Below are positions 27,426-42,664 of a DNA stretch of 64,000 bases, in pieces. Origin of the DNA: Paraburkholderia sp. ZP32-5 (GTDB taxonomy: Bacteria > Pseudomonadota > Gammaproteobacteria > Burkholderiales > Burkholderiaceae); assembly GCF_021390495.1 (NCBI RefSeq), contig NZ_JAJEJP010000002.1:1922001-1986000 (forward strand). The letters run 5' to 3'. The position numbers were made by a program, and so were the translations under genes. The notes under the pieces were generated by a model. That model saw only the letters and a list, made by a program, of their open reading frames with translations. It was not told the origin of the DNA and ran no database searches. Within the stretch, counting starts at the first letter, position 1, and the number at the start of each line of letters is the position of its first letter.

Positions 27426-28148
27426 TCATGCGCGGGGCGCCGCACTGCCGAACGGCAGGCGCTCCCACAACACGAACGGCTCACCCGGCGCCGGTTCGAC
27501 GAAGAGCGCGGCCCGATCGATCGCGAGCGGCCCGAGTTCGGTCGTGCGCTGCCGCCACCATGCGAGCAGCGTCGCGCGTTCGTTGGCATCGGCAAGCGAG
27601 TTGGACAGCGTCATATGAAAACGGAATTCGTCGAGCACGTACGGGTAACCCCATTGGAGCAGCAACGTACGTTGCCGTTCACTCAAGGGCGCGGCGAGCC
27701 GGCGTGCGAGATCGGCCGCCGATGGCTGCGCGCGCAACGTATCGAGCGATTGCAGCGCGCTCGCCGCGACTTCGCGCATACGCGCATCGCCATGCGCATC
27801 GGCGGGCCGCAACGCGACGAAATCGCCGAGCGTCGCGGCTTCGATCGGCAGCGCAAACGGCTGTTGCGTGAGCGCCCACGCACGCGCCACTTCGAGCACG
27901 TCTGCCTGCGTGATGCTGGCGTCGAGCCTGAACGGCGCAACCAGCGTGCCATGCCAGCCGTAGCGGCGCGGCGCATCGGTCAATGCCGCCAATGGACGCG
28001 TCAATCCCGGCAGTTGCGGTGGCACGCAATCCTTGCCGCTTTGCGCGTCGCGGCCGAGCCATGCGGAGCCTGCCTGCCACCACATCGATTCATGCGACGG
28101 CGCGTAGTAGACGGCAAAGCGCGCCTGTGCGTCCCACGCGCCGCTCAC
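27426..28148 (-). CDS. DUF1045 phosphonate-locus protein
   Basis: A 240-residue DUF1045 protein, a family found almost only in C-P lyase loci and predicted to have a 2H-phosphoesterase fold. Two HxT/S-type motifs are seen: YGWHGTL near 64-70, and FHMTLSN near 180-186. If active, it could act as a phosphodiesterase on a cyclic phosphate, possibly replacing PhnP. GTG at 28148 overlaps the phnF stop in a GTGA arrangement, so the start is well fixed. Function is inferred from fold and context only. Confidence 0.82.
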   Translation of the reverse strand: MSGAWDAQARFAVYYAPSHESMWWQAGSAWLGRDAQSGKDCVPPQLPGLTRPLAALTDAPRRYGWHGTLVAPFRLDASITQADVLEVARAWALTQQPFALPIEAATLGDFVALRPADAHGDARMREVAASALQSLDTLRAQPSAADLARRLAAPLSERQRTLLLQWGYPYVLDEFRFHMTLSNSLADANERATLLAWWRQRTTELGPLAIDRAALFVEPAPGEPFVLWERLPFGSAAPRA

Positions 28149-28903
28149 AGATCGTGCTCCACGAGCAGTTGCACACGATCCGCGGCGAAATGCGTGAAGC
28201 CGTATTTGACCGGAGTCCCCTGCATATCGACGTCGACGTTTTCGACCCACAGCACCGGCTGCTGACGATTGATGTTCAGGCGTCGCGCCACTTCGGGCTC
28301 GGGCAGCACGCTGCCGATACGGCTCCACTTGCGCAGATAATCGGTGACGCCGAATTCGGCCAGTGCTTTCGTCATGCCGCCGACCCGCTGCACCACGTCC
28401 GGCAAATCGGTGAAACGCATCGCCGGATACCAGCTGCGCGCAAATGTGAGCGGCACGCCGTCGGACTCGTTCAGCGATTCGATGCGATACACCGCGGTGC
28501 CGGCACGCAGCCCCAGCGCCTTCGCCACGCCCGGTTCGGCCTTCACGCGCGCGGCCGACAGCATCTTGCCGGCCGGCGCATGATGCTGCTGCCGCAGGTT
28601 TTCGGTGAAGCGCGTACGGCGGCCAATCGTATAGTCGATCGCACCGGGCTGCACGAACGTGCCGCGCCCCTGCTCGACGCTGACGAGACCGAGCGCGGCG
28701 AGGCCGAGCATCGCGCGGCGCACGGTATGGCGGTTGACGTCGAAGCGTTTGGCCAGTTCACCCTCGCTCGGCAGCCGGCCCTCGTCGCCGAAACCACTGG
28801 CCGCTATCTCGGCCGCGAGGATCTGTTCGATCTGCCGCCAGACGGCCACGCCCGCGCCGCGTTCGAGTGTCGTGGCCGGCGCCGCGCTGTCGTTCGATGT
28901 CAT
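28145..28903 (-). CDS. phnF: Phosphonate regulon transcriptional regulator, GntR/HutC family
   Basis: A 252-residue regulator with a GntR winged helix at about 20-85 (LPSEGELAKRFDVNRHTVRRAMLGL) and a UTRA effector domain at about 100-245. It is divergent from phnG across 180 bases that contain an 18-bp perfect palindrome with GTCTAGAC at the centre, the form recognised by HutC-type regulators. It is therefore the probable repressor of phnG-M and of its own arm. The gene is followed in a 4-base overlap by the DUF1045 gene. Confidence 0.88.
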   Translation of the reverse strand: MTSNDSAAPATTLERGAGVAVWRQIEQILAAEIAASGFGDEGRLPSEGELAKRFDVNRHTVRRAMLGLAALGLVSVEQGRGTFVQPGAIDYTIGRRTRFTENLRQQHHAPAGKMLSAARVKAEPGVAKALGLRAGTAVYRIESLNESDGVPLTFARSWYPAMRFTDLPDVVQRVGGMTKALAEFGVTDYLRKWSRIGSVLPEPEVARRLNINRQQPVLWVENVDVDMQGTPVKYGFTHFAADRVQLLVEHDL

Positions 28904-29017
28904 GGTGCTGTCATTCCCCCAGGTTCAAATGATCGCCATGAAGGCATTGTAGTGCGCAAGCCATGATGGAAATATGAAATGGCCGCCACACGCGGAATTG
29001 CGCGCAACACACGACTA

Positions 29018-29035
29018 TAAACGTCTAGACGTTTA
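29018..29035. promoter_or_regulatory. Candidate PhnF operator, 18-bp perfect palindrome
   Basis: TAAACGTCTAGACGTTTA is a perfect palindrome, with GTCTAGAC in the centre matching the GT-N-TA-N-AC form of HutC-subfamily operators. It sits 48 bases before the phnG start and overlaps a TATAAA (29016-29021) that may serve as a -10 element. Confidence 0.65.
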
Positions 29036-29083
29036 GATGAATAGATGGTTGAATGTCTACTCGCTGAATCGACAGGAATTCCG

Positions 29084-29581
29084 ATGAGCGTCACCTCCCC
29101 CTCCTCTTCTTCCGCCGTGCCGTCATCGACCCGGCGCGCCTGGATGGCCGTGCTGGCCCGCACGCCGCGCGCCGACCTCGAAGCCGCGTTCGAGCATCTG
29201 TTACGCGACCTCCCCGCTCCCTCCTACGACTGGCTGCGCCCGCCTGAAATCGGTCTCGCGATGGTACGCGGGCGCATCGGCGGCAGCGGCGATCCGTTCA
29301 ATCTCGGCGAAGCAACGGTCACGCGCGCGACGCTGCGCTTGCGTACCAACGATGGCGCGAATGCGACCGTCGGCGTCGCCTGTCATCTGGGCCGCGACCG
29401 CCGCCGCGCCGAACTGGCCGCGCTTGCCGACGCGTTGCTGCAAATGCCCGAGCATCACGATCGCTTGCATCGTCAGTTGATCGAGCCATTCGCCGCACGG
29501 CAGCAGGCACACCATGCGCAACAACGACAGGACGCGGCGTCGACGCGCGTCGAATTCTTTACGATGGTGCGAGGCGACTGA
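29084..29581 (+). CDS. phnG: Phosphonate C-P lyase system protein PhnG
   Basis: A 165-residue PhnG, a core subunit of the PhnGHIJ complex. The family segment RRAWMAVLARTP is near 17-28 and the LRPPEIGLAMVRGRIGG stretch near 51-67. With PhnI and PhnH it attaches phosphonate to ATP as ribose-triphosphate derivative. The ATG at 29084 is the natural start after the operator. The stop overlaps the phnH start (TGATG). The first 15 residues are a Ser-rich extension compared with the usual PhnG. Confidence 0.9.
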   Translation: MSVTSPSSSSAVPSSTRRAWMAVLARTPRADLEAAFEHLLRDLPAPSYDWLRPPEIGLAMVRGRIGGSGDPFNLGEATVTRATLRLRTNDGANATVGVACHLGRDRRRAELAALADALLQMPEHHDRLHRQLIEPFAARQQAHHAQQRQDAASTRVEFFTMVRGD

Positions 29582-30192
29582 TGGAAAGCGCACAGATTGC
29601 TTTATCGACGCTGACGCCGGGCTTCGCGGATCCGGTCCACGATACGCAGGCGGTCTTTCGCACGCTGCTCGATACGCTGTCGCGGCCGGGCACGATCGGC
29701 TTGATCGGCGACGTGCTGCCCGAGCCGCATCGCGCGCGCGCCGAACCCGCCGCGTTCGCGGCGCTGCTGACGCTCTGCGATTACGCGACGCCCGTCTGGC
29801 TCGCGCAACCCGACACCGCGCTCGCATCGGCGTTGCGCTTTCATACCGGCGCGCCCCTCGTCGATACACCGGCCAACGCCGCGTTTGCCTATCTGCACGA
29901 TGCCGAAGCACTGCCGCCGCTGGAAAGCTTTGCGCCCGGCAGCGCCGAATCGCCCGAGCAGTCGGCCACGCTGCTGATCCGCGTCGATGCATTGACAGGC
30001 GGTGAACCGATCGCGCTGCGCGGCCCCGGCATCCGCGATACCGCGACGATTTCGCCAGTCGGCTTGCCCGCGCGATTCTGGCGCGAACGCGCGACGCTCG
30101 CGCCGCTGTTTCCATCCGGCATCGACTGTTATCTGGTTTGCGGTACGCGCCTGATCGGCTTGCCGCGCACAACTGAAGCAAAGGTGAACTGA
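29581..30192 (+). CDS. phnH: Phosphonate C-P lyase system protein PhnH
   Basis: A 203-residue PhnH, a subunit of the C-P lyase core. The N-terminus LTPGFADPVHDTQAVFRTLLDTLSRPG (written here by ends only: LTPGF to SRPG) and the C-terminal FPSGIDCYLVC region are typical. PhnH is PLP-transferase-like in fold but binds no cofactor. ATG at 29581 overlaps the phnG stop in TGATG, and its own stop overlaps phnI likewise, so translation is coupled along the operon. Confidence 0.9.
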   Translation: MESAQIALSTLTPGFADPVHDTQAVFRTLLDTLSRPGTIGLIGDVLPEPHRARAEPAAFAALLTLCDYATPVWLAQPDTALASALRFHTGAPLVDTPANAAFAYLHDAEALPPLESFAPGSAESPEQSATLLIRVDALTGGEPIALRGPGIRDTATISPVGLPARFWRERATLAPLFPSGIDCYLVCGTRLIGLPRTTEAKVN

Positions 30193-31334
30193 TGTACGTT
30201 GCAGTCAAAGGTGGAGAGCGCGCGATCGAAGCATCGTGGCGCCTGCTCGACAAGGCACGCCGCGGCGATACGCAAATCGCCGAACTCAGCGTCGCGCAGA
30301 TTCGCGAGCAGTTGCGTCTCGCGGTCGCACGCGTGATGACCGAAGGCTCGATCTACGACGAAGAACTCGCCGCACTCGCGATCAAGCAGGCCGCCGGCGA
30401 TCTGGTCGAAGCGATCTTTCTGCTGCGCGCATATCGCACCACGTTGCCACGCTTCGGCTATACGCGCGCCATCGACACCGAAACGATGCAGGTCGAGCGG
30501 CGCATTTCGGCAACCTTCAAGGACGTGCCGGGCGGTCAACTTCTGGGCGCGACCTACGATTACACGCAGCGTCTGCTCGATTTCGCGCTGCTTGCCGACG
30601 CTCAGCATGAAGCGACAGCGCTGTATGGCGATGCATCGACTCCGCGCGAAACACCCGCAACGGAGCCGATGCCGCGCGTCGTCTCGTTGCTCGACAAGGA
30701 AGGTCTGATCGAACAGGAACGTCCGACGCTCGATGGTACGGAGCCGGGCGATCTGTCGCGCGAACCGCTGGCCTTTCCGGCCAGCCGTGCGACGCGCTTG
30801 CAGAATCTCGCGCGCGGCGATGAAGGCTTTCTGCTCGCGATGGGTTACGCGACGCAACGCGGCTACGCGAATTCGCATCCGTTCGCGGGCGAGATCCGCT
30901 TCGGCACGATCGCGGTCGAGATGGATCTCGACGAACTCGATGGACCGGACCGCGCGGTCGATATCGGCGACATCGACATCACCGAATGCCAGATGATCAA
31001 CCAGTTCGCGGGCAGCAGCACGGTAGCGCCGACCTTTACGCAAGGCTACGGCCTCGCGTTCGGCCACTCGGAGCGCAAGGCGATGGCGATGGCACTCGTC
31101 GATCGCGCGTTGCGCGCGGAAGAACTCGGCGAAACGCTGGCGTCGCCAACCCAGGACATCGAATTCATGCTGTCGCATAGCGATAACGTCGAAGCGTCGG
31201 GCTTCGTGCAGCATCTGAAATTGCCGCATTACGTCGACTTCCAGTCGGAGTTGGAACTGGTGCGGCGTCTGCGCGCGCAGCATCAATGCAACGACGAAGC
31301 CGGCGAGACCAGCGACAGGGAGCACGCAGCATGA
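30192..31334 (+). CDS. phnI: Phosphonate C-P lyase subunit PhnI
   Basis: A 380-residue PhnI, the purine nucleosidase-like component that joins methylphosphonate to the ribose of ATP with loss of adenine. MYVAVKGGERAI opens the protein as in all PhnI, and RGYANSHPFAGEIR near 226-239 is a conserved core. It is coupled to phnH by TGATG and overlaps phnJ by four bases. Length is close to that of other PhnI. Confidence 0.92.
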   Translation: MYVAVKGGERAIEASWRLLDKARRGDTQIAELSVAQIREQLRLAVARVMTEGSIYDEELAALAIKQAAGDLVEAIFLLRAYRTTLPRFGYTRAIDTETMQVERRISATFKDVPGGQLLGATYDYTQRLLDFALLADAQHEATALYGDASTPRETPATEPMPRVVSLLDKEGLIEQERPTLDGTEPGDLSREPLAFPASRATRLQNLARGDEGFLLAMGYATQRGYANSHPFAGEIRFGTIAVEMDLDELDGPDRAVDIGDIDITECQMINQFAGSSTVAPTFTQGYGLAFGHSERKAMAMALVDRALRAEELGETLASPTQDIEFMLSHSDNVEASGFVQHLKLPHYVDFQSELELVRRLRAQHQCNDEAGETSDREHAA

Positions 31335-32281
31335 ACGCACCGGATACCGCTCTTTCTTCCGCCACGTACGACAGCGCCGCGCACGGCTACAACTTCGCGT
31401 ATCTCGACGAGCAGACCAAGCGCATGCTGCGCCGCGCGCTGCTCAAGGCGGTGGCCGTGCCGGGCTACCAGGTCCCGTTCGCTTCGCGTGAAATGCCGCT
31501 GCCATTCGGCTGGGGCACCGGCGGCATCCAGGTGACGGCCGCGATCATCGGCAAACAGGACACGCTGAAGGTGATCGATCAAGGCTCCGACGAAACCACC
31601 AACGCGGTCAATATCCGCCGCTTCTTCGCGCGCACGACCGGCGTCGCGACCACGCGCCGCACGAGCGACGCGACGATCATCCAGACCCGTCACCGGATTC
31701 CCGAAACGCCGCTGACCGAGCAGCAGATTCTGGTCTATCAGGTGCCGATGCCGGAACCGCTGTACCGGCTCGAACCGCGCGTCACCGAATGCAAAAAGCT
31801 GCATGCGCTCGCCGACTATGGGCTCATCAGCGTGAAGCTTTACGAGGACATCGTGCATCACGGCAGCATCGCGACCACGTACGACTATCCGGTGATCGTC
31901 AACCATCGCTATCTGACGTCGCCGTCGCCGATCCCGAAGTTCGACAACCCGAAGATGCATATGAATGCCGCGCTGCAGCTGTTCGGCGCGGGCCGCGAAC
32001 GCCGGATTCACGCGATTCCGCCGTACACCCATGTGCGCAGTCTCGACTTCGACGATCACCCGTTCGAAGTGCAGAAATGGCAGCACGCGTGCGCGCTGTG
32101 CGGATCGAAAGAGAGCTTTCTCGACGAGATGATCGTCGACGACGCGGGCACGCGCATGTTCGTCTGCTCGGATAGCGACTATTGCCACGAACGGCGCGAT
32201 GGCGGTGAAATCGATAGCGCGACAGGCACCGAAGCGCAGCAGCCGCTGCCGCACCGCGCACGCGAAGGAGAATCCGTATGA
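31331..32281 (+). CDS. phnJ: Alpha-D-ribose 1-methylphosphonate 5-phosphate C-P lyase
   Basis: A 316-residue radical-SAM C-P lyase. The four essential cysteines are in the exact spacing known for PhnJ: Cys254-X2-Cys257-X21-Cys279-X5-Cys285. The first three are cluster ligands and the last is the catalytic thiyl cysteine in the family. It splits the C-P bond to give methane (or another alkane) and the ribose cyclic phosphate. The ATG at 31331 overlaps the phnI stop by four bases. Confidence 0.95.
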   Translation: MNAPDTALSSATYDSAAHGYNFAYLDEQTKRMLRRALLKAVAVPGYQVPFASREMPLPFGWGTGGIQVTAAIIGKQDTLKVIDQGSDETTNAVNIRRFFARTTGVATTRRTSDATIIQTRHRIPETPLTEQQILVYQVPMPEPLYRLEPRVTECKKLHALADYGLISVKLYEDIVHHGSIATTYDYPVIVNHRYLTSPSPIPKFDNPKMHMNAALQLFGAGRERRIHAIPPYTHVRSLDFDDHPFEVQKWQHACALCGSKESFLDEMIVDDAGTRMFVCSDSDYCHERRDGGEIDSATGTEAQQPLPHRAREGESV

Positions 32282-33048
32282 CGCCGCTGCTGAGCGCTCG
32301 CGCGCTCACCAAACAGTATGGCGGCCGCAACGGTTGCCGCAACGTCAGCTTCGATCTGTATCCGGGCGAGGTGCTGTGCATCGTCGGCGAATCGGGTTCG
32401 GGCAAGACCACGCTGCTCAACACGCTCGCGTTGAAGACCGAAGCCGATAGCGGCTCGCTGCATTACACCGCGTCGCACGGCGACGTGCTCGATCTGCGCG
32501 CGCTGTCCGAGCCGCGCCGCCGTCTGCTGATGCGCACCGAGTGGGGCTTCGTGCAGCAAAATCCACGCGATGGTTTGCGCATCGGCGTATCGGCCGGCGC
32601 GAATATCGGCGAGCCGCTGATGGCGGTCGGCGCACGCCACTATGGCGACATTCGCCGCACTGCGACGCAGTGGATGGAGCGCGTCGAGCTGGACCCTACC
32701 CGTATCGACGAATTTCCCACCGCGTTTTCGGGCGGCATGCAGCAGCGTTTGCAGATCGCGCGCAATCTCGTCACCGGTCCACGGCTCGTCTTTATGGACG
32801 AACCGACCGCCGGCCTCGACGTGTCGGTGCAGGCACGTCTGCTCGATCTGTTGCGCACGCTGAGTTCGACGCTGCATCTGTCGGTGCTGATCGTTACGCA
32901 CGATATCGGCGTGGCGCGTCTGCTCGCGCATCGGTTGATGGTGATGCAAGCCGGCGAAGTCGTCGAAGCCGGCTTGACCGATCAGGTGCTCGACGATCCG
33001 CAGCATCCGTATACGCAAACGCTGGTTTCCTCGGTTCTGCCGGTTTGA
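32278..33048 (+). CDS. phnK: Phosphonate C-P lyase ATP-binding protein PhnK
   Basis: A 256-residue ABC-type ATPase. Walker A GESGSGKT is at 37-44, the signature FSGGMQQRLQIAR near 146-158 and MDEPTAGLD near 174-182. PhnK binds the PhnGHIJ core and powers its cycle rather than energising a transporter. The start overlaps the phnJ stop in ATGA, with GAAGGAG upstream. It sits in its usual place between phnJ and phnL. Confidence 0.92.
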   Translation: MTPLLSARALTKQYGGRNGCRNVSFDLYPGEVLCIVGESGSGKTTLLNTLALKTEADSGSLHYTASHGDVLDLRALSEPRRRLLMRTEWGFVQQNPRDGLRIGVSAGANIGEPLMAVGARHYGDIRRTATQWMERVELDPTRIDEFPTAFSGGMQQRLQIARNLVTGPRLVFMDEPTAGLDVSVQARLLDLLRTLSSTLHLSVLIVTHDIGVARLLAHRLMVMQAGEVVEAGLTDQVLDDPQHPYTQTLVSSVLPV

Positions 33049-33056
33049 GGCTCATC

Positions 33057-33806
33057 ATGCAATCCACTGAAACAGGCGCCGAACCCGCTTTCGCCACCAA
33101 CCCGGCGCTGATGCTGCGCGCCGCCGGCATCGGCAAGACCTTTACGCTGCACGGCCAGGGCGGCGTCCAGATCGAAGCGCTCGCGGACGTATCGCTCGAC
33201 GTCGAGCGCGGCGAATGCGTGGTGCTGGTCGGGCCGTCGGGCGCGGGCAAGAGCACGCTGCTGCGCTGTCTGTATGGCAACTATGTCGCGAGCGCGGGTT
33301 CGATCGATATCCGCGATACCAGCGATGATGGCCAGCCGGTGTCGATCACCGGCGCGCAACCGCGCGACGTACTGCGTTTGCGCCGCAATGTCGTGGGCTA
33401 CGTGAGCCAGTTTCTGCGCGTGATCCCGCGCGTGCCGACGCTCACGCTCGTCGCCGAGCCGCTGCTGTTGCACGGCGTCCCCGAGCACGAAGCGCGTGAG
33501 CGCGCCGCCGCGCTGCTCGCGCGCCTGAACGTGCCCGAGCGGCTGTGGGCGCTCGCGCCCGCGACGTTTTCCGGCGGCGAACAGCAGCGTGTGAATATCG
33601 CACGCGGCTTGATTGCCGAGCATCCGTTGCTGCTGCTCGACGAACCGACCGCGTCGCTCGATGCGCAAAACCGCGACACGGTGGCCGAACTGATCGTCGA
33701 TGCGCGCGAGCGCGGCGCGGCGATCGTCGGCATCTTCCACGACGAGGAAACGCGCAACAAGGTGGCGACCCGTCGCATCGAACTGCGGCCGCCACGGCGC
33801 CATTAA
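33057..33806 (+). CDS. phnL: Phosphonate C-P lyase ATP-binding protein PhnL
   Basis: A 249-residue ABC-type ATPase with Walker A GPSGAGKS at 59-66, signature FSGGEQQRVNIARG near 170-183 and LDEPTASLD near 193-201. PhnL joins PhnK on the C-P lyase core. The ATG at 33057 lies eight bases after the phnK stop, with TTGAGG upstream. Its first 18 residues are a short extension compared with other PhnL. Confidence 0.92.
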   Translation: MQSTETGAEPAFATNPALMLRAAGIGKTFTLHGQGGVQIEALADVSLDVERGECVVLVGPSGAGKSTLLRCLYGNYVASAGSIDIRDTSDDGQPVSITGAQPRDVLRLRRNVVGYVSQFLRVIPRVPTLTLVAEPLLLHGVPEHEARERAAALLARLNVPERLWALAPATFSGGEQQRVNIARGLIAEHPLLLLDEPTASLDAQNRDTVAELIVDARERGAAIVGIFHDEETRNKVATRRIELRPPRRH

Positions 33807-33822
33807 GCGCGATCGAGCGCGC

Positions 33823-33851
33823 TTGACACAAAGCGGCGCCACACTGATACA
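33823..33851 (+). promoter_or_regulatory. Possible internal promoter before phnM
   Basis: A perfect -35 hexamer TTGACA (33823-33828) is followed 17 bases later by GATACA (33846-33851), a weak -10. It lies in the only sizeable gap of the phnG-M run (73 bases), so phnM may be separately transcribed. Confidence 0.35.
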
Positions 33852-33879
33852 AAGCCCGACTGACTACGGAGCAAGTCGA

Positions 33880-35013
33880 ATGTTGATCAGCAATGCTCGC
33901 GTCGTGACGCGAGACGAAGTATTCACCGGCGTGGTACGCGTCGAGGACGGCGTGATTCGCGATATCGAACGCGGCGCGACTTCCGCGCGCGATGCCGAAG
34001 ACTGGGACGGCGACTATCTGCTGCCTGGCCTGATCGAATTGCACACGGACAACCTCGAAAAGCATCTGGCGCCGCGTCCGGGCGTCGAATGGAACACCGA
34101 CGCCGCGTTCGTGATTCACGACGCGCAGGTCGCCGCGGCCGGCATCACGACCGTCTTCGACGCGCTCGCGATCGGCACGCGCTGGAGCGTCGGCGTGCGC
34201 GGCCGCGACACGCAGACCCGATGCGCGGATTCGTTGCAACGGCTCGCCGCGCGTCAATTGCTGCGCGCCGAGCACTTTCTGCATCTGCGCTGCGAGGTCG
34301 CGACCGCCGATGTCGTCGAGGTCTTCGATTCGTTGTGCGAGCACCCGCTGCTGCGGCTCGTATCGGTGATGGATCACACGCCCGGCCAGCGTCAATGGCA
34401 TGACCGCGAGCAATGGCGCCGCTACCAGGAGCGCAACGGCAAGATGACCGACGAACGCGTGGCCAGCGCACTCGCCGAACTCGCGGTCGAACAGGAACGT
34501 TACGCGGATGCGCACCGTCACGAAATCGTGTCGCGCTGCAAGACGCTCGGCATTCCGGTCGCGAGTCACGACGACACGCTGATCGAGCACGTCGAACAGG
34601 CGAAGTCCGAGGGCATCGTGCTGGCCGAATTTCCGACTACGCGTATCGCCGCCGAGGCCGCGCGCGAGCACGGCATCGCGACGATCATGGGCGCGCCGAA
34701 CGTGGTGCGCGGCGGCTCGCACTCGGGCAACGTATCGGCTCTGGAACTCGCGCGCGCGGACCTGCTCGACATTCTGTCGTCGGACTACGTGCCGTCGAGT
34801 TTGTTGACCGCGGTATTCGATCTGGTCGAAAAAGCCGATTGGACGCTGCCGCGCGCGATGTCTACGGTTTCGGCCGAGCCGGCCCGCACAGCCGGTTTGA
34901 CCGACCGCGGCGCGATCGAGCCAGGTTTGCGCGCGGACCTCGTACGCGTGACGATGCTCGGCGCGCTACCGGTGCCGCGCGCGACGTATCGGGGTGGCGT
35001 GCGGATCGTTTGA
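33880..35013 (+). CDS. phnM: Alpha-D-ribose 1-methylphosphonate 5-triphosphate diphosphatase
   Basis: A 377-residue amidohydrolase-superfamily enzyme. Metal ligands start with HTD at 55-57 (LIELHTDNLEKH), a later lysine/His set follows, and ASHDD near 228-232 completes the site. It releases pyrophosphate from the ribose triphosphate intermediate made by PhnI. The ATG at 33880 is 73 bases after phnL, behind a possible promoter. It closes the operon; nothing else for phosphonate use lies downstream. Confidence 0.92.
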   Translation: MLISNARVVTRDEVFTGVVRVEDGVIRDIERGATSARDAEDWDGDYLLPGLIELHTDNLEKHLAPRPGVEWNTDAAFVIHDAQVAAAGITTVFDALAIGTRWSVGVRGRDTQTRCADSLQRLAARQLLRAEHFLHLRCEVATADVVEVFDSLCEHPLLRLVSVMDHTPGQRQWHDREQWRRYQERNGKMTDERVASALAELAVEQERYADAHRHEIVSRCKTLGIPVASHDDTLIEHVEQAKSEGIVLAEFPTTRIAAEAAREHGIATIMGAPNVVRGGSHSGNVSALELARADLLDILSSDYVPSSLLTAVFDLVEKADWTLPRAMSTVSAEPARTAGLTDRGAIEPGLRADLVRVTMLGALPVPRATYRGGVRIV

Positions 35014-35084
35014 ACGGGCTGTGGCCTACGCGGGATGTGCGCCGGGCTTACCGTATTGGATTGAATAAGCGCGAGCGGCCCGCG

Positions 35085-36992
35085 TCAGGCAGTCGGCTCC
35101 GCTTCGCGCCCTTCCACACCGGCTACCGCGCCTTCCGCGGCACGTGCGCGCGCTGCGTCGTTTCTCGCGGCCTCTCCGGTGGCTTCGGCGTCCCGCGCAT
35201 CCTGCACCTCACCTGCCTCGCCGGCCTCATCAGCCTCATCGGCAGATTCATGCTGACGCGCGTCGCGCAGATCCCGATAGCGCAAATACGCGCACCGTCC
35301 GCCCGATTTCGCCGCATACATCGCCGCATCGGCATTCAGCAGCAGTTCCTCGGCATTGCCGCTATCGTGCGGGAATTCGCTGATGCCGATGCTCGCGCCG
35401 ACCGTCATGCTGTCGCCGTCGATCGTCAGCGTTTCGTTCAGCGCATCCATGATGCGCGCGGCGATCGTCGGCGTCTGCTCTTCGATGCGCTCCCCCTCGA
35501 TCAGCACGATAAATTCGTCGCCGCCGAGCCGCGCGACCACATCGCCGGAATGAAGCACGTGCTTCAGGCGACCCGCGACCGCAACCAGTACCTTGTCGCC
35601 GACCGAGTGACCGAACTGATCGTTGATCTGCTTGAAGCGGTCGAGATCGACGAACAGCACCGCGAGCCCGTCGTGATGCCGCTTCGCATTGACGATCGCG
35701 CTCTCCAGCTTCTGCATGAACAGCATGCGGTTCGGCAGCCCGGTCAGCACATCGTGCGAGGCCAGATGCGCGAGTTCGCTCTGCTTGCTGTGCAGCGTAT
35801 CCATCTGCGCGCGGATTTCGCGCCGCAGCCGGTCGAAGCAACGCGCCAGCACGCCGATTTCATCCGTGCGTTTGAGCGGCAACGTGTTCATCGCGTGGTC
35901 GGCGAACTGATGGGTCGCCGCATACGCGAGCAGATGCAGCGGCTTGGTCAGCGCCCGCGCGAACAGAATCGCCAGCAAGACCGACAGCGCGCTGAAGACG
36001 AGCACCATGCGAATGATCCGCGTGCCGAGCTGATGCGCGCCGGCCAGCACATCTTCGAGCGGCTTCGCGAGACCGAGCACGATAAAGCGGTTGCCCTCCG
36101 AGCCGCTGAACGGGCGGCGCACGAACGCGAGGACCTGCCCGTCCGCCTGACGCGGGCTCGCGAGCCCGTTAGCCAGCACCGAACCCCGAGTCTGGTCGAA
36201 CAGCGGCTTCGTAACCGGGAAGCTGTCCTGCATCAGCACGCGCCGGCCGCGGTCGAAGCCAAAGGTTTTCGACGGATCCGGATGAATCAGGAAGTCGCCC
36301 CATTCATTGGCGAGATAGACCTGGTAGTCGCTCGGCAGATCGCTCTGCAAGCGTCGCAGCATGCCGCCCAGATCGATATCGATCACCACGACGCCGACCA
36401 CCGTGCCGTTCGCGTCGGCGATCGGCGTGCCGAGGCGCAACGTCGGTTTGCCCTGCGCGGCGTGCGTACCGTATTCATGATTGACGCCGATCGGCGACGT
36501 ATAGATACGGCCCGGCGCGAACGTCAGCGTATCGAACACATAGGCGAACTGGCCTTTTTCCTGCAGATCGTCGCCCTCCACGCGCACCAGACCATCGCGG
36601 TCGCGATCGAAGCGGATCAGTTCGAGCCCATGATGCTGGCGCGTAATCAAGCGCACCTGCAGATATTCCGGGTGATGCATCATGAAGCTCGAATACACCT
36701 GCGCCAGACGTTCACGCGTCGGGTTCCGGCCCATGCCGTCGTCGCTCTGCGCGACGCCCACCGAAGACGGCATCGTCGCGAGCACGAGTGCGTCCGCCGC
36801 AACGTCGTCGATCGAAACCGCAATGCGCTGGCCGAGCAGTTCCGTCGACGTCAGCAGGCTGCGCTCCGCTTCGTTGACGAGCATCGTGCGATTCGCGCGA
36901 TACGCGTAGTAGCCGGTCGCGCCCGAAGCGAGCACGCCGATGCAGGCGAGCAGCACCGAGAGCTTGAAGGTCAGGCCGCGCCGCCACTTCAT
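35085..36992 (-). CDS. Membrane diguanylate cyclase with Cache-like sensor, HAMP and GGDEF
   Basis: A 635-residue inner-membrane protein. A first helix at about 10-30, a periplasmic Cache-type sensor of about 300 residues, a second helix (VFSALSVLLAILFARAL), a HAMP-like linker and a GGDEF domain follow in order. GGDEF is at 490-494 in RLGGDEF, so cyclase activity is likely. The inhibitory I-site five residues before it reads HSGD, not RxxD, so product feedback is probably lost. From about 578 the C-terminus is an acidic, Ala/Glu/Asp-rich tail. ATG at 36992 overlaps the upstream solute-binding protein stop (TGATG), so both are translated together. Confidence 0.88.
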   Translation of the reverse strand: MKWRRGLTFKLSVLLACIGVLASGATGYYAYRANRTMLVNEAERSLLTSTELLGQRIAVSIDDVAADALVLATMPSSVGVAQSDDGMGRNPTRERLAQVYSSFMMHHPEYLQVRLITRQHHGLELIRFDRDRDGLVRVEGDDLQEKGQFAYVFDTLTFAPGRIYTSPIGVNHEYGTHAAQGKPTLRLGTPIADANGTVVGVVVIDIDLGGMLRRLQSDLPSDYQVYLANEWGDFLIHPDPSKTFGFDRGRRVLMQDSFPVTKPLFDQTRGSVLANGLASPRQADGQVLAFVRRPFSGSEGNRFIVLGLAKPLEDVLAGAHQLGTRIIRMVLVFSALSVLLAILFARALTKPLHLLAYAATHQFADHAMNTLPLKRTDEIGVLARCFDRLRREIRAQMDTLHSKQSELAHLASHDVLTGLPNRMLFMQKLESAIVNAKRHHDGLAVLFVDLDRFKQINDQFGHSVGDKVLVAVAGRLKHVLHSGDVVARLGGDEFIVLIEGERIEEQTPTIAARIMDALNETLTIDGDSMTVGASIGISEFPHDSGNAEELLLNADAAMYAAKSGGRCAYLRYRDLRDARQHESADEADEAGEAGEVQDARDAEATGEAARNDAARARAAEGAVAGVEGREAEPTA

Positions 36993-38227
36993 CAGAAGCG
37001 CCCCGAGCGGTCGCCCGACACGATCCGCGTCCACAGATCCTCGCGCCGCTGGATGTCTTCGACCGGGCCGATCCAGACGATATGCGCATTGGCACTCGTT
37101 TCCGCCGGCTCCGTCAGCGTGTTCGCGAGCCCCTGGCGTTGCGTGAGCAGTGCGCTGACGCTCGGTTCGAGCATGTAGTTGATCCATTCGAGCGCGAGCG
37201 GTTTATCGCTCGCCGCGCGCGTCATCGACCAGCAATCGAGCCATGCAAGCACGCCTTCATCGGGAATCACGTAGCCGACGTCGGCGCCCGCGCGGCGCAG
37301 CAACTGAAGCTGCTGCGTGCCGTAGTTGCCGAACATCAGCGCGACCTTGTGCTGAACGAAGAACGCGGTCGCCTCTTCCGGCAGCGTGTAGTACGTAAGC
37401 AGGTTGCGGCGCAAATCGACCAGCTTGTGCGCGATCGCGCGCATCTGTTCGGGGTCGAGCTGGAACGGATGCGGATAGCCGAGCGCGAGCGCGGTGAACG
37501 AGAAGTTGTGCTGCGCGCTGTTGAAGTCGAGCACCTTGCCGCGATAGCGCGGGTTCCATAATTCACGCATCGAGTGCGGCGCGACCGGAATCTGCTTGCG
37601 ATCGTAGATCAGCCCCATCGTCGAATACGTGAACGGAATCGCGTACACGTTGCCGCCCGAGGTCAGCCCATGGATCGAGCCGAGCGCCTGGAAACGCGGC
37701 AATTGCCGGCGCGTATTCGGCAGCTTCGTCAGATCGAGCGGGGCGAGCAGATTCGCGTCGGCGTAGCGGCTAATTTCGGCGGTGTTGGCGGCGAGCACGT
37801 CGAACCGCGGCGCGTCCTTGTTATGCATCTGCGACCACAACGCCTCGTCGGAATCGACCAGCGTGACTTCGACCTTCGCGTCATAGCGCGTTTCGAATGC
37901 CTTGACGACATCGGGATCCGCATAGCCGGGCCACGCAAGCACGCGCAGCACTTTTTCGGCGGCCGCGGCGGGCCTTGCGACGCCCAAACCGGCGCAAAAA
38001 AGCATGCCGATCAAAAGCGGCAAAAGCGCTGAAAAAACAATGGATAAAGCAGCCGCATAAAAACCGGCGCCAGACACCGACAAAAATGTTGACGGAAAAA
38101 TACTAAAAACGCCGCGGCGCAATAACGGAACGCGCACCGGGGAAGATACGACTGGAATTCGCCGTTGAAAAACCTGCTTACAACAGTTCTTTTCATCCAC
38201 CATCAACATCGTGTGCATGGATAACAC
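36992..38227 (-). CDS. Periplasmic solute-binding protein (PotD-like) coupled to the diguanylate cyclase
   Basis: A protein of up to 411 residues. A hydrophobic stretch and signal-like sequence lie at about 58-90, ending ARPAAAA before the mature EKVLRVLAWPGYADP. The rest is a type II periplasmic binding fold like spermidine/putrescine-binding PotD. The start is uncertain: GTG 38227, ATG 38218 or a later one would fit; I keep the longest. No permease or ATPase is nearby. The stop overlaps the start of the GGDEF gene, so the binding protein probably serves as the sensor that presents a ligand to the cyclase's periplasmic domain. Confidence 0.78.
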   Translation of the reverse strand: MLSMHTMLMVDEKNCCKQVFQRRIPVVSSPVRVPLLRRGVFSIFPSTFLSVSGAGFYAAALSIVFSALLPLLIGMLFCAGLGVARPAAAAEKVLRVLAWPGYADPDVVKAFETRYDAKVEVTLVDSDEALWSQMHNKDAPRFDVLAANTAEISRYADANLLAPLDLTKLPNTRRQLPRFQALGSIHGLTSGGNVYAIPFTYSTMGLIYDRKQIPVAPHSMRELWNPRYRGKVLDFNSAQHNFSFTALALGYPHPFQLDPEQMRAIAHKLVDLRRNLLTYYTLPEEATAFFVQHKVALMFGNYGTQQLQLLRRAGADVGYVIPDEGVLAWLDCWSMTRAASDKPLALEWINYMLEPSVSALLTQRQGLANTLTEPAETSANAHIVWIGPVEDIQRREDLWTRIVSGDRSGRF

Positions 38228-38863
38228 CGTTTAGCAGAAGGCCTTTTTTGACCCGGCGCAAACGCGCGGCAGTTTAAATCGACGGCTACCCGGCGACTTT
38301 CTTCAGACCGATACGCCGGATGCGAAGCCACCGGCGACGAACACACGGAGCAACGATGATAGCGCCAAAGCCCGCATTTTTTTGCCCCTGTCGAAATGGT
38401 TTCGAAAAAAATCTCCGACGCCGGTTATAACGGGTAATACGCGGATGAGCGCGGTGTCGTTAATTAACGGCAGCTTATCCAGAATCTTTAACTGCCCGGT
38501 TTCGCTCCAGTTCACAAATGTACGCCAATCGTAATCCCCGAAAAAAATCCTTGAATATGCGCTGATTACGCGCGCGGCCTTGATTTTTATGGCTTTCCCA
38601 TTACGGTCCCATTACGCAAACACCAGACGGCGGTGTACGATTCGAGCCACACCGATTCGCACGCGGCGAAACTTTAGAGGACCTCCTCGCTTGCCATCCG
38701 GTGTTTTACTAGCTTCCCAATTTTTTTGAACTGATAAGCTTGCCCCGCGCTGTTGGCCACTCCGGCCGGCAGCATGAACGAAGCCCGTCGCGAATCGCGC
38801 CGGGCCACCTGCGGCGGCACAACCGCCGCGGGCGTAATTGAACTACACCGAGGAGTAAAAACA
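38228..38863. other. 636-base AT-richer intergenic region
   Basis: Divergent region between the binding-protein/cyclase pair and a plus-strand amino-acid binding protein. It is visibly richer in A and T than the neighbourhood. It contains a 12-base palindrome CGTTAATTAACG at 38458-38469, a GGTTATAACG motif near 38423, twin CCCATTACG units near 38596 and 38606 and a GAGGACCTC inverted motif near 38678. Open frames here are short and lack coding character. I assign no gene. Confidence 0.55.
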
Positions 38864-39646
38864 GTGAAAAAACTGCTAGCGGCTTTGACGGTTGCTCTGA
38901 TTGCCACCGTCTCGATTGGCGCACACGCTAAAGATTGGTCGACGATCCGTTTTGGCGTTGACGCCAGCTATCCCCCGTTCGAGTCGAAAGGCGCGGACGG
39001 CAAGCTCGTTGGCTTCGATATCGACCTCGGCAACGAAATCTGCAAGCGCGTGGGCGCGAAGTGCGTGTGGGTCGAGAACGACTTCGACGGCATGATCCCG
39101 GCGCTGAAGGCGAAGAAGTTCGACGGCGTGCTGTCGTCGATGTCGATGACGCCGCAACGTGCCGAACAGGTCGCGTTCTCGTCGAAGCTGTTCAACACGC
39201 CGACGCGCCTCGTCGCGAAGAAGGGTTCGGGCATCCTGCCGACCGCTGATTCGCTGAAGGGCAAGTCGGTCGGCGTCGAACAGGGCACGATCCAGGAAAC
39301 CTACGCGAAGACCTACTGGGAGCCGAAGGGCACCAAGGTCGTGCCGTATCAGAACCAGGACCAGGTCTATGCCGACCTGATCTCGGGCCGTCTGGATGCA
39401 GCACTGCAAGACGCGGTGCAGGCTGAGCAAGGCTTCCTGAAGACGCCGCGCGGCGCGGGCTTCGACTTCGTCGGCAAGAACCTCGACGATCCGAAGATCC
39501 TCGGCAATGGCGCGGGCATCGGCATGCGCAAGGAAGACACCGATCTGAAGGCGAAGGTCGACAAGGCGATCGCCGACATGATCAAGGACGGCACCTACAA
39601 GAAGATCGAACAGAAGTACTTCGACTTCGACGTGTACGGCAGCTAA
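38864..39646 (+). CDS. Polar amino-acid ABC transporter substrate-binding protein (ArgT/HisJ-like)
   Basis: A 260-residue periplasmic binding protein with a Sec signal peptide at 1-22 (AHA before Lys23). WSTIRFGVDASYPPFESK is the family N-terminus, GFDIDLGNEI lies near 48-57, and the QGTIQETYAK region is typical of lysine/arginine/ornithine- or histidine-binding proteins. GTG at 38864 follows AGGAG at nine bases and is the start. No permease or ATPase genes follow, so it probably works with a transporter encoded elsewhere. A strong terminator lies 45 bases after the stop. Confidence 0.88.
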   Translation: MKKLLAALTVALIATVSIGAHAKDWSTIRFGVDASYPPFESKGADGKLVGFDIDLGNEICKRVGAKCVWVENDFDGMIPALKAKKFDGVLSSMSMTPQRAEQVAFSSKLFNTPTRLVAKKGSGILPTADSLKGKSVGVEQGTIQETYAKTYWEPKGTKVVPYQNQDQVYADLISGRLDAALQDAVQAEQGFLKTPRGAGFDFVGKNLDDPKILGNGAGIGMRKEDTDLKAKVDKAIADMIKDGTYKKIEQKYFDFDVYGS

Positions 39647-39966
39647 ATCGGTCGAGCACGCCGCACGGCGTGCCGGCTGATCTGATTGCCCCAAAACGGG
39701 CTCCGCGTCGCGGGGCCCGTTTTGTTTTGGTCCGCGCGCAAGCGGGCATCGCGAGCCGCGTTGCTGGGTACATCGCGGTCCAGATTCGGCTAAGATCGTG
39801 CGACACGCGGGACTCATGACACCACCCCGGAGACAATCCCGCAGCGCGCCACCCGCCCGGATATCCCCCGGTCGAGCCTGAAACCGGCCCGTCGCGGCGC
39901 GCATCTTTCCCCATGCAATCAACTACATAGCGCGGCTCACTACACTGAACCGCGAAGCCAAAAATC
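39647..39966. other. 320-base gap between the amino-acid binding protein and the M14 gene
   Basis: It contains the terminator at 39692-39729 and then about 235 bases without a supported gene. TGCAATCAACTACATAG near 39914 lies before the next gene, but no clear -10/-35 pair is seen. Confidence 0.5.
39692..39729 (+). terminator. Rho-independent terminator of the amino-acid binding protein gene
   Basis: CAAAACGGGC pairs with GCCCGTTTTG around a second GC stem, followed by TTTGTTTTGG. It lies 45 bases after the stop. Confidence 0.85.
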
Positions 39967-41082
39967 ATGCAAACGCAAAATCATCCGCTGATCGCCCCAT
40001 CGCTTGGCACCGCCCGCAGCCTGACGAGTTTTCACTACGGTCCCAGCGGCGGACAGAAGATCTACATCCAGTCGTCGCTGCACGCGGACGAGCTGCCCGG
40101 CATGCTGGTGTCGTGGGCACTGCGCCGCAAGCTCGCCGCGCTCGAAGCCGCGGGCAAGCTGCGCGGCGAAGTCGTGATCGTGCCGGTGCCCAATCCGGTC
40201 GGCCTCAATCAGCATCTGCTCGGCCATCTGATGGGACGCTTCGAAACCGGCACCGCGCAGAACTTCAACCGCAACTTTTACGACCTCGCGGCGCTCGTGC
40301 TGCCGGTCATCGAATCGCGTCTCAGCGGCGACATCGACGCCAATCGCAGCGCGATTCGCGCGGCGATGCGCGAAGCGCTCGACGCGCAGGAACCGACCAC
40401 CGAACTCGCATCGCAACGCCTCGCGCTGCAGAAGCTGTCGTACGACGCCGACGTGGTGCTCGATCTGCATTGCGACTGGGAAGCCGCGATGCACATCTAT
40501 ACGAACCCCGATCTGTGGCCGGACGTCGAGCCGCTCGCGCGCTATCTGGACGCGAAGGCATCGCTGCTCGCGCTCAATTCGGTGGGCAATCCGTTCGACG
40601 AGATCCACAGCTTCTGCTGGTCGGATCTGCGCGGCCGGTTCGGCGAGCGCTTCCCGATTCCGAACGGCGGCATCTCGGTCACGGTCGAACTGCGCGGCCA
40701 GCGCGAAGTGTCGTACGAGTACGCGGAGCAGGACTCGCAGGCGATCATCGAATATCTGACCTCTCGCGGCGTGATCGACGGCGAAGCGGCCCCGCTGCCG
40801 CCGCTCGAATTCGCCGCGACGCCGCTCGCCGGCACCGAGCCGCTGGTCGCGCCGATCAGCGGCGTGCTCGTGTACCGCTGCGAAGTCGGCACCTGGGTCG
40901 ACGCGGGCCATCCGATCGCGGACATCGTCGATCCGTTGACGGACCGCGTCGTCACGATCAAGAACAGCGTGGCCGGCGTGCTGTACGCGCGGCATCTGGC
41001 GCGCTTCGCGACCGCCGGGCTCGAGTTCGCGCGCATTGCCGGCGCGAAGGCGTTCAGAAGCGGTTCGTTGTTGAGCAATTGA
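39967..41082 (+). CDS. Succinylglutamate desuccinylase/aspartoacylase-family (M14) zinc deacylase
   Basis: A 371-residue M14-type zinc hydrolase. His39 and Glu42 in LHADE and His168 in DLHCD are the metal ligands; NFNRNF (99-104) holds the substrate arginine and Glu near 238 (VTVELRG) is the general base. The C-terminal 100 residues form a beta-rich extension that ends with a barrel-like domain. It probably removes an acyl group from an amino acid or similar compound. The family name is sure, the substrate is not. The ATG at 39967 fits the family start. It may act on compounds taken up by the binding protein upstream, but a terminator separates the two. Confidence 0.8.
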   Translation: MQTQNHPLIAPSLGTARSLTSFHYGPSGGQKIYIQSSLHADELPGMLVSWALRRKLAALEAAGKLRGEVVIVPVPNPVGLNQHLLGHLMGRFETGTAQNFNRNFYDLAALVLPVIESRLSGDIDANRSAIRAAMREALDAQEPTTELASQRLALQKLSYDADVVLDLHCDWEAAMHIYTNPDLWPDVEPLARYLDAKASLLALNSVGNPFDEIHSFCWSDLRGRFGERFPIPNGGISVTVELRGQREVSYEYAEQDSQAIIEYLTSRGVIDGEAAPLPPLEFAATPLAGTEPLVAPISGVLVYRCEVGTWVDAGHPIADIVDPLTDRVVTIKNSVAGVLYARHLARFATAGLEFARIAGAKAFRSGSLLSN

Positions 41083-41530
41083 CACATAGCCGGCGCACAA
41101 TTCGCGCAACTGACGCGCCATGCAGTCGACCGGAAAGCTGATCCGACCAACTGCGAAAGAAAAATGGAAGCCACTCGTTTAAACACGTAAGCGAATCCAT
41201 TGATTGACAAAAAAAATCGCCTACCGCCCGGTAGGCGATTTTCTTTTATGCAACCGAAGAGCCGCACCACGCCACGCGCTCCGCAACGCTGCGCGAAAGA
41301 CCCCCACTGTTCACTCGTCTCCCCTCTGTGCCGCAACACCCCGCAAGCAAGCACATTCTTCCGTGACAGGTCCTCCAACTCGGCAAATGTGTCGCATCGG
41401 CACGACAATTCTTCAAAAAATTCTATCTGTCACATAGCATTCGCAGCGCCCGCTTAAATTCCCGGCCATCGCGCGACATTGCCGAAGAGCAACGCGTCGC
41501 GATCGCCTAATTTCCTAACTGGAGAGTGTT
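41083..41530. other. 448-base region upstream of the porin gene
   Basis: It contains the bidirectional terminator at 41213-41247. Its right part is the porin leader, ending in GGAGAG before the TTG start. No reliable promoter hexamers or coding frame were found in the rest. Confidence 0.5.
41213..41247. terminator. Bidirectional Rho-independent terminator
   Basis: AAAATCGCCTACC and GGTAGGCGATTTT form a 13-bp perfect stem around GCCC. T-rich runs follow in both directions (TTTTCTTTT on plus, TTTTTTTTG on minus). It closes the M14 gene and insulates the porin. Confidence 0.88.
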
Positions 41531-42664
41531 TTGAACAAGAAAATCCTGACCGCCGCTACGTTTGCCGTTTTCGCGAGCGCCGCTCACGCACAAAGCAGCG
41601 TCACGCTGTACGGCATCATCGATGCTGGTATCAGCTACGTGAACAATTCCAAGACGGCTACCGGCCATGACAACCTGACCAAGTACGACGACGGCGTCGC
41701 GCAAGGCAGCCGTTGGGGCATCAAGGGCCAGGAAGACCTGGGCGGTGGCCTGAAGGCGCTGTTCACGTTGGAGAACGGCTTCAACAGCGGTAACGGCACG
41801 CTTGGCCAAGGTGGCGCGATGTTCGGCCGCCAGGCTTATGTCGGTCTGTCGAAGGACGGTATCGGCTCGCTGACGTTCGGTCGCCAGTACTCGTTCACGA
41901 CCGATATCCTCGGCAGCAACTACTCGACCGGTAACCTGACCGTCGCGGGTAACTACGCTTACCACATCAACGACGTCGACCAGCTGACGTCGAGCCGTAT
42001 CAACAACTCGGTCAAGTTCAGCAGCGCGAACTTCTCGGGTCTGACGTTCGGCGCAATGTACGGCTTCTCGAACCAGGCTGGCGAATTCGCAGGCTCGAAT
42101 GCAGTCGGCACGACGGCGGGTTCGTCGCGCGCATACAGCTTCGGCGCGAACTACGCGAACGGCCCGTTCTCGGTCGGCGCTGCATACACCGACATCACCT
42201 ATCCGGGTCAGGCAACGCCGGCATTTTCGACGTCGCTGGCTAACTTGTCGTTCAGCGTGCGCGATCTGCGTGCATTCGGCGTCGGCGGCCGCTACTCGAT
42301 CGGCCCGGCTACGCTGTGGGCGTTGTACACGAACACCCGCCTCGAACAGATCACGGGTCCGTCGGCAACGTTCAGCGCGTACGAAGCAGGCGCGAAGTAC
42401 GCGATCACGCCGGCTATCACGGCAGGCGCTGGCTACACCTACATGCACCTGAACAACAGTCTCGGCCACTGGAACCAGGTGGACCTGAGCGCCGACTACG
42501 CACTGTCGAAGCGTACGGACGTGTACGTGCTGGGTATCTACCAGGACGCATCGGGCCACAACCTGCAAGCGCAGATCGGTTCGAGCACGAGCTACTTCAG
42601 CACGTCGGGCGTTGGTGCTGACGACCAGCTCGCATTCCGTGTCGGTATCCGTCACAAGTTCTAA
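41531..42664 (+). CDS. Outer-membrane porin, OmpC/gram-negative porin family
   Basis: A 377-residue porin typical of Burkholderia-group bacteria. The signal peptide is 1-20 (AHA before Gln21), the mature N-terminus is SSVTLYGIIDAGISYVNNS, constriction-loop signature sequences such as EDLGGGLKALFTLENGF and GRQAYVGLSKDGIGSLTFGRQYS occur in the first third (quoted by sense, not in full), and the last residue is Phe, as needed for BAM recognition. It should form trimers of 16-stranded barrels. The start is TTG at 41531, behind GGAGAG; no ATG lies near. Codon usage is strongly biased to preferred codons, as expected for an abundant protein. Confidence 0.92.
   Translation: MNKKILTAATFAVFASAAHAQSSVTLYGIIDAGISYVNNSKTATGHDNLTKYDDGVAQGSRWGIKGQEDLGGGLKALFTLENGFNSGNGTLGQGGAMFGRQAYVGLSKDGIGSLTFGRQYSFTTDILGSNYSTGNLTVAGNYAYHINDVDQLTSSRINNSVKFSSANFSGLTFGAMYGFSNQAGEFAGSNAVGTTAGSSRAYSFGANYANGPFSVGAAYTDITYPGQATPAFSTSLANLSFSVRDLRAFGVGGRYSIGPATLWALYTNTRLEQITGPSATFSAYEAGAKYAITPAITAGAGYTYMHLNNSLGHWNQVDLSADYALSKRTDVYVLGIYQDASGHNLQAQIGSSTSYFSTSGVGADDQLAFRVGIRHKF

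What the first reader, a model, noticed from the sequence alone, without database searches (positions are those of the whole stretch)
35085..38227. Solute-binding protein translationally coupled to a Cache-GGDEF diguanylate cyclase
The stop codon of a PotD-like periplasmic binding protein overlaps the start codon of a membrane diguanylate cyclase with a large periplasmic sensor (TGATG at 36990-36994). No permease or ATPase gene lies near. Seen: the overlap, domains and signal sequences. Known: binding proteins can act as co-sensors for chemoreceptors and some kinases. Inferred: the binding protein reports its ligand, possibly a polyamine or related amine, to the cyclase, linking nutrient or host signals to c-di-GMP. 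The apparent loss of the inhibitory RxxD site (HSGD) suggests output without product feedback.
Basis: partly seen in the sequence, partly recalled or inferred. Interest (0 to 1): 0.72.

Follow-up and report, generated by a model that had tools for sequence, protein, structure and literature searches.

The report
Binding protein paired with c-di-GMP synthase
In Paraburkholderia and related bacteria the gene for a PotD-like binding protein overlaps the gene for a membrane enzyme predicted to make the signal molecule c-di-GMP, and the two stay side by side in nearly every examined relative that has the enzyme, so the binding protein likely serves as the enzyme's detector for a ligand that is still unknown.

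Summary
A PotD-like solute-binding protein (SBP) and a dCache-GGDEF protein share one base (TGATG, 36990-36994), and the pair is no accident. In the genus, 99 of 144 genomes carry both genes, always adjacent; 44 carry neither; one holds only a cyclase remnant. Stop and start overlap in 70 of 73 loci. All 72 named loci with a cyclase matched over its sensor (down to 42% identity) have the SBP directly upstream although flanking genes change, and none shows a Pot permease. The genome has a separate PotF-PotGHI set. A co-receptor is the best reading (0.7). The polyamine guess is weakened: of 13 recalled PotD contact positions four keep PotD's residue. RxxD is lost here (HSGD) but intact in 12 of 73. 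Against: 11 of 26 SBP-bearing genomes in an order-wide search lack the cyclase beside it; nearby SBP and kinase genes elsewhere proved unlinked; the sensor family is not clearly richer in SBP neighbours than a control (4 of 30 against 1 of 30). Docking, ligand and sign are untested.

The parts
36992..38218 (-). PotD-like solute-binding protein gene (408 aa from ATG 38218; 411 aa if GTG 38227 is used); N-terminal hydrophobic stretch ending ...RPAAAA-EK, read as a signal peptide
36990..36994 (-). TGATG, one-base stop/start overlap
   Evidence: stop and start overlap in 70 of 73 loci, gap of 2 in 3
35085..36992 (-). Membrane sensor-GGDEF protein gene (635 aa)
36039..36896 (-). Periplasmic dCache sensor domain (about residues 33-318) between two predicted membrane helices
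35811..35966 (-). HAMP-like linker (residues 343-394), below Pfam cut-off
   Evidence: 19.5 bits, cut-off 25
35295..35762 (-). GGDEF domain (residues 411-566)
   Evidence: 163 bits
35541..35552 (-). HSGD in place of the RxxD inhibitory site
   Evidence: RxxD intact in 12 of 73 members
35511..35525 (-). GGDEF active-site motif, intact
   Evidence: GGDEF in 70 of 73, SGDEF 2, HGDEF 1

Best explanation
The two overlapping genes encode a PotD-like binding protein, predicted to be periplasmic, and a membrane protein predicted to be a diguanylate cyclase, and they likely form a two-part receptor in which the loaded binding protein would dock on the cyclase's periplasmic dCache domain and change c-di-GMP synthesis. 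Shown: the overlap, the domains, the predicted folds and the tight linkage across relatives. Inferred: export of the SBP, docking, that loading switches the cyclase on (by analogy with norspermidine-loaded NspS raising c-di-GMP through MbaA), and that it feeds no ABC importer. The ligand is unknown. It likely places a cationic group near the conserved Trp/Tyr/Asp of the pocket, but is probably not spermidine or putrescine held as in PotD or PotF. Loss of RxxD in this clade would free the output from product inhibition.
For: Genus: 99 of 144 genomes have both genes, 99 of 99 adjacent on one strand with the SBP upstream, 0 SBP only, 1 cyclase fragment only (G130), 44 neither. Named genomes: 72 of 75 loci match over sensor and GGDEF and all 72 have the SBP directly upstream, down to 42% identity; the other 3 match in the GGDEF domain only and have no SBP. 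Overlap of stop and start in 70 of 73. The flanks change while the pair stays (phnM near in 19 of 72, ArgT in 39 of 72) and no PotB, PotC, PotH or PotI hit lies in the 72 loci, flanks up to 5 kb. The own genome has a PotF (48% identity, 397 bits) with PotG, PotH and PotI beside it. Order search: 15 of 26 SBP-bearing genomes have the cyclase sensor directly downstream. Six of 29 class-level loci of related sensors have an unrelated PhnD-like SBP directly upstream; four of these receptors, scanned, are histidine kinases. Precedent: NspS-MbaA.
Against: No binding, complex or c-di-GMP data. 11 of 26 SBP-bearing genomes in the order search have no cyclase beside the SBP, and 5 of these 11 have only a weak sensor match elsewhere, so the SBP has, or had, another use. 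The nearest relatives on plasmids outside Burkholderia (33-35% identity) belong to ABC transporter gene sets in Rhizobium and Phaeobacter. In P. aeruginosa three SBPs of the same Pfam family coded next to sensor kinases gave no evidence of acting on them (PMC11113362). SBP neighbours are not clearly commoner for PF21623 sensors (4 of 30) than for dCache_1 controls (1 of 30).
Confidence: 0.7

Rival explanations
1. It is a polyamine sensor like NspS-MbaA, tuned to spermidine, putrescine or a relative. This is a narrower form of the best explanation.
For: PotD/PotF-type proteins are the closest solved relatives by sequence and fold; W34, Y37, W255 and D257 of PotD are kept in 73 of 73; same arrangement as nspS-mbaA. 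Position E171 is not strict: the genome's own PotF has Q there. In two orphan-SBP genomes the family SBP lies about 3.4 kb from a PotF gene and its permeases (L157, L166).
Against: E171 is H, W229 N, Y293 L, T35 P and S83 N in 73 of 73, and nearly so in 22 order-level members, so most of the recalled contacts are gone. Equivalents of NspS D90 and D236 are N and, in the window, T; this is mapped through PotD numbering, not from an alignment with NspS. SBP_bac_8 proteins predicted to bind polyamines can prefer GABA (PMC11113362).
Confidence: 0.25
2. The cyclase senses a small ligand directly through its dCache domain; the SBP is merely co-expressed and feeds a transporter coded elsewhere.
For: dCache domains of several solved relatives bind small ligands directly, e.g. 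7k5n with proline and 6f9g with putrescine (titles). SBP genes next to receptors are not always linked in function. The SBP exists without the cyclase in 11 of 26 genomes and its distant kin are transporter parts.
Against: No SBP without cyclase in 144 genomes of the genus; overlap in 70 of 73; no Pot permease near in 72 loci; the genome's PotGHI have their own PotF.
Confidence: 0.2
3. The overlap is only compact gene packing: two independent genes that share a promoter.
For: Short overlaps are common in bacteria (recalled). No sigma-70-like promoter was found anywhere in 34900-38800, so the transcript itself is not established.
Against: The pair stays together while both flanks change and across 42-100% identity; co-occurrence in the genus is nearly perfect.
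Confidence: 0.1

Closest known systems
NspS-MbaA (Vibrio cholerae, Sinorhizobium meliloti)
   Same: PotD/PotF-like SBP gene directly upstream of, and overlapping, a membrane receptor with a periplasmic domain and a GGDEF output; no transporter role needed; RxxD absent (as in the window).
   Different: MbaA has SGDEF plus EAL (EVL) and acts as phosphodiesterase as well; ours has GGDEF and no EAL-like motif in 73 of 73. Different pocket residues; different clade: the S. meliloti paper's survey found 222 of 16,076 proteobacterial genomes, and the word Burkholderia does not occur in its main text. Sequence kinship with NspS or MbaA was not tested.
PotD / PotF / SpuD / SpuE polyamine-binding proteins
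   Different: 21-25% identity to E. coli PotD and PotF and to the own PotF; most recalled contacts replaced; no permease partner nearby.
[not shown]
   Different: The relatives scanned in the class search are mostly histidine kinases without this SBP.
LuxP-LuxQ, TorT-TorS, ChvE-VirA and other SBP-activated receptors (recalled, not from a call)
   Same: Periplasmic binding protein reports its ligand to a membrane receptor.
   Different: Other SBP families and kinase outputs.

Membership tests
NspS-MbaA systems | PotD/PotF-like SBP gene directly upstream of and overlapping the receptor gene | tested here: met
NspS-MbaA systems | Receptor with periplasmic domain between two membrane helices and a GGDEF-type domain | tested here: met
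   HAMP is below cut-off
NspS-MbaA systems | Tandem EAL (phosphodiesterase) domain behind the GGDEF domain | tested here: not met
   Pfam shows none; no EAL-like motif behind GGDEF in 73 of 73; no EAL family listed for the 120 best of 677 homologues
NspS-MbaA systems | Ligand contacts of NspS (W41, D70, D90, F131, Y233, D236, W261, D263) | tested here: inconclusive
   Mapped through PotD numbering only: W41, W261 and D263 equivalents kept; D90, Y233 and D236 equivalents are N, N and T in the window; D70 and F131 not mapped
NspS-MbaA systems | Response to polyamines through the SBP | not testable with these tools
   needs binding and c-di-GMP assays
NspS-MbaA systems | Orthology of SBP and receptor with NspS and MbaA | not tested
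   no NspS or MbaA sequence was fetched
Polyamine ABC importer SBP (PotD/PotF) | PotD-like fold | tested here: met
Polyamine ABC importer SBP (PotD/PotF) | Permease and ATPase genes of the importer next to the SBP | tested here: not met
   no PotB, PotC, PotH or PotI hit in 72 loci, flanks up to 5 kb
Polyamine ABC importer SBP (PotD/PotF) | Full set of polyamine contacts | tested here: not met
   4 of 13 recalled PotD positions kept, Q327 in a gap
dCache sensor, PF21623 | Profile over cut-off and dCache fold | tested here: met
Active diguanylate cyclase | GGDEF domain with intact motif | tested here: met
   catalysis itself not testable here
Feedback-inhibited diguanylate cyclase | RxxD inhibitory site | tested here: not met
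   HSGD in the window; intact in 12 of 73 members

The most novel reading that the evidence does not exclude
Burkholderiales own an undescribed branch of SBP-gated c-di-GMP receptors: a GGDEF-only cyclase whose dCache domain is built to be docked by a partner rather than to bind a small ligand, read by a PotD-derived SBP with a rebuilt pocket (invariant HN, NYG-QQ and GL-NT motifs) for a non-polyamine ligand. Kin of the same sensor took a wholly different, PhnD-like SBP and a kinase output, so binding protein and output would be interchangeable parts around one docking module.
Probability: 0.3. Interest if true: 0.72.

Novelty: new variant of a known kind. Interest (0 to 1): 0.52.

Why it matters
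Ligands are known for few of the many c-di-GMP enzymes. An SBP is soluble and can be screened by thermal shift, so this pair offers a direct route from an orphan cyclase to its signal in plant- and soil-associated Paraburkholderia, Caballeronia, Burkholderia and relatives. It would extend the SBP-to-c-di-GMP principle from the GGDEF-EAL receptors of Vibrio and Sinorhizobium to a pure synthase, and would test whether one dCache module can work with unrelated binding proteins.

Tried and rejected
Rejected: chance overlap. Rejected: a functional tie to the neighbouring phn or ArgT genes; phnM is near in 19 of 72 loci and ArgT in 39 of 72, some loci being cut short by contig ends. Not supported as a general rule: that PF21623 sensors sit behind SBP genes. 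Of the 30 best loci of each class search, 14 (PF21623) and 18 (dCache_1) had a same-strand upstream ORF by my criterion, and 4 and 1 of these matched Phosphonate-bd; three of the 4 are genes already seen's set. The profile of our own sensor gave 6 of 29, with 1.5 kb of flank only.

Led nowhere: Rfam, 0 matches in the window; sigma-70 scan, 0 sites; NCBIfam equivalogs, for the cyclase and SBP all shown were below cut-off except the generic GGDEF domain model. Ligand from the neighbours of distant kin: the Rhizobium and Phaeobacter loci hold sugar-acid-type enzymes and, in Phaeobacter, a tyramine oxidase, too mixed to use. Direction of change between orphan and paired SBPs: paired rows need one change, support only 59/88, root-dependent (FastTree gave 83 paired rows with no orphan inside, support 0.83).

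Papers: PMC9993111 passages and its sequence-and-phylogeny section; PMC8079147, PMC8846402, PMC9602780, PMC11113362 passages only; all others search listings only. That no paper describes a GGDEF-only SBP-cyclase pair in Burkholderiales rests on searches of an open-licence library and is no proof.

Full report

Linkage. In 144 genomes of the genus the SBP (E up to 1e-60) is found in 99 and the sensor (E up to 1e-30) in 100. The handles agree: 99 both, 0 SBP only, 1 sensor fragment only (G130, 89 residues), 44 neither; in 99 of 99 the genes are adjacent, on one strand, SBP upstream. In G107 the sensor matched in two pieces. A family-wide search found the sensor in 86 of 349 genomes and 5 of 25 genera. 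A search of named genomes kept 75 loci, the best of 578 candidates; 72 match over sensor and GGDEF and all 72 have the SBP directly upstream, down to 42% cyclase identity in beta-proteobacterial genomes such as Thiobacillus and Azovibrio; the remaining 3 match in the GGDEF domain only and have no SBP. Many of these species recur in the genus search, so the two sets are not independent. Over the window and 72 loci the stop and start overlap in 70 of 73 and are 2 bases apart in 3.

Context. The flanks change while the pair stays: phnM near in 19 of 72, an ArgT-like SBP and an AstE/AspA-like gene in 39 of 72, no PotB, PotC, PotH or PotI hit in any (up to 5 kb each side, less where contigs end). 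The genome holds 30 SBP_bac_8 matches. Its PotF counterpart lies at C1:2356748-2357845 (48% identity, 397 bits) with PotG, PotH and PotI homologues beside it, while the window SBP scores 41 bits against PotF.

Breadth and counter-evidence. In 379 genomes of the order the SBP profile (E up to 1e-60) hits 26; 15 have the sensor directly downstream, 11 do not. In those 11 genomes the sensor profile gives at best weak matches elsewhere (5 of 11, best E 2.5e-20), and no Pot permease adjoins the SBP itself, though in L157 and L166 a PotF gene with permeases lies about 3.4 kb away. Paired SBPs need one change on the tree, with weak support (59/88). So the cyclase keeps the SBP, but the SBP can live without the cyclase. 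The best plasmid-borne kin outside Burkholderia (33-35% identity) are parts of ABC transporter gene sets.

Pocket. Aligned with E. coli PotD and PotF, the family keeps W34, Y37, W255 and D257 (PotD numbers) in 73 of 73, and replaces T35 by P, E36 by G, S83 by N, E171 by H, W229 by N and Y293 by L in 73 of 73, and Y85 by A in 71 of 73. The 22 further order-level members agree except Q for H in one and H for P in two. The position list is recalled. E171 alone is not decisive, because the genome's own PotF has Q there. I conclude that an ordinary polyamine pose is unlikely; the ligand is open.

Output. GGDEF is intact in 70 of 73 (SGDEF 2, HGDEF 1) and no EAL-like motif follows in any; the 120 homologues listed of 677 show no EAL family. 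RxxD is intact in 12 of 73, among them all members under 50% identity, and lost in the window (HSGD) and most Paraburkholderia and Caballeronia.

The sensor's kin. In 369 genomes of the class the sensor profile hits 44 at E up to 1e-20. None of the 29 foreign loci fetched has the family SBP within 1.5 kb, but 6 of 29 have a PhnD-like SBP directly upstream (5 confirmed as Phosphonate-bd), and four of these receptors, scanned with Pfam, are histidine kinases. This suggests that the module can work with unrelated SBPs. The control tempers it: 4 of 30 PF21623 loci against 1 of 30 dCache_1 loci have such a neighbour.

Comparison. The closest known system is NspS-MbaA: PotD-like SBP, overlapping genes, membrane receptor, no RxxD, but SGDEF plus EAL or EVL and proven phosphodiesterase action. 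The S. meliloti survey found it in 222 of 16,076 proteobacterial genomes; the section read names Vibrio, Pseudomonas, Sinorhizobium and others, and the word Burkholderia does not occur in that paper's main text. Because the EAL domain is missing, I do not file this pair as an NspS-MbaA member; it works like one. A caution comes from P. aeruginosa, where SBPs of the same Pfam family coded beside kinases gave no evidence of acting on them.

Verdict. Observation confirmed; interpretation partly supported. Co-receptor 0.7, polyamine ligand 0.25. New variant of a known kind.

Noticed in passing
window 28145-35013: Phosphonate (C-P lyase, phn) gene cluster on the + strand, read from translations; its last gene ends 72 bases from the cyclase end. 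A phnM hit is near the pair in 19 of 72 loci.
   Followed up: partly
window 38753-42664: Lys/Arg/Orn-type SBP (TIGR01096 over cut-off) starting divergently from the pair, then an AstE/AspA-like deacylase and a porin-like gene; I saw no amino-acid permease between them. ArgT and deacylase recur in 39 of 72 loci.
   Followed up: partly
L143, L145, L147-L155: SBPs of the same family, same pocket, with neither cyclase sensor nor Pot permease directly beside them; their partner is unknown.
   Followed up: partly
L103, L105, L107, L108, L109, L112: PhnD-like SBP genes directly upstream of PF21623 receptors in class-level relatives; those scanned are histidine kinases.
   Followed up: partly
L180 5926-9785, L181 5935-10868: Rhizobium and Phaeobacter plasmid ABC transporters whose SBP shares the W-x-D-x-W motif with this family, beside sugar-acid-type enzymes and, in Phaeobacter, a tyramine oxidase.
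   Followed up: no
P0123, P0146, P0178, P0199, P0216: Homologues of the cyclase are named deoxyuridine 5'-triphosphate nucleotidohydrolase in public records although their listed domains are dCache, PF21623 and GGDEF: a likely misannotation.
   Followed up: no
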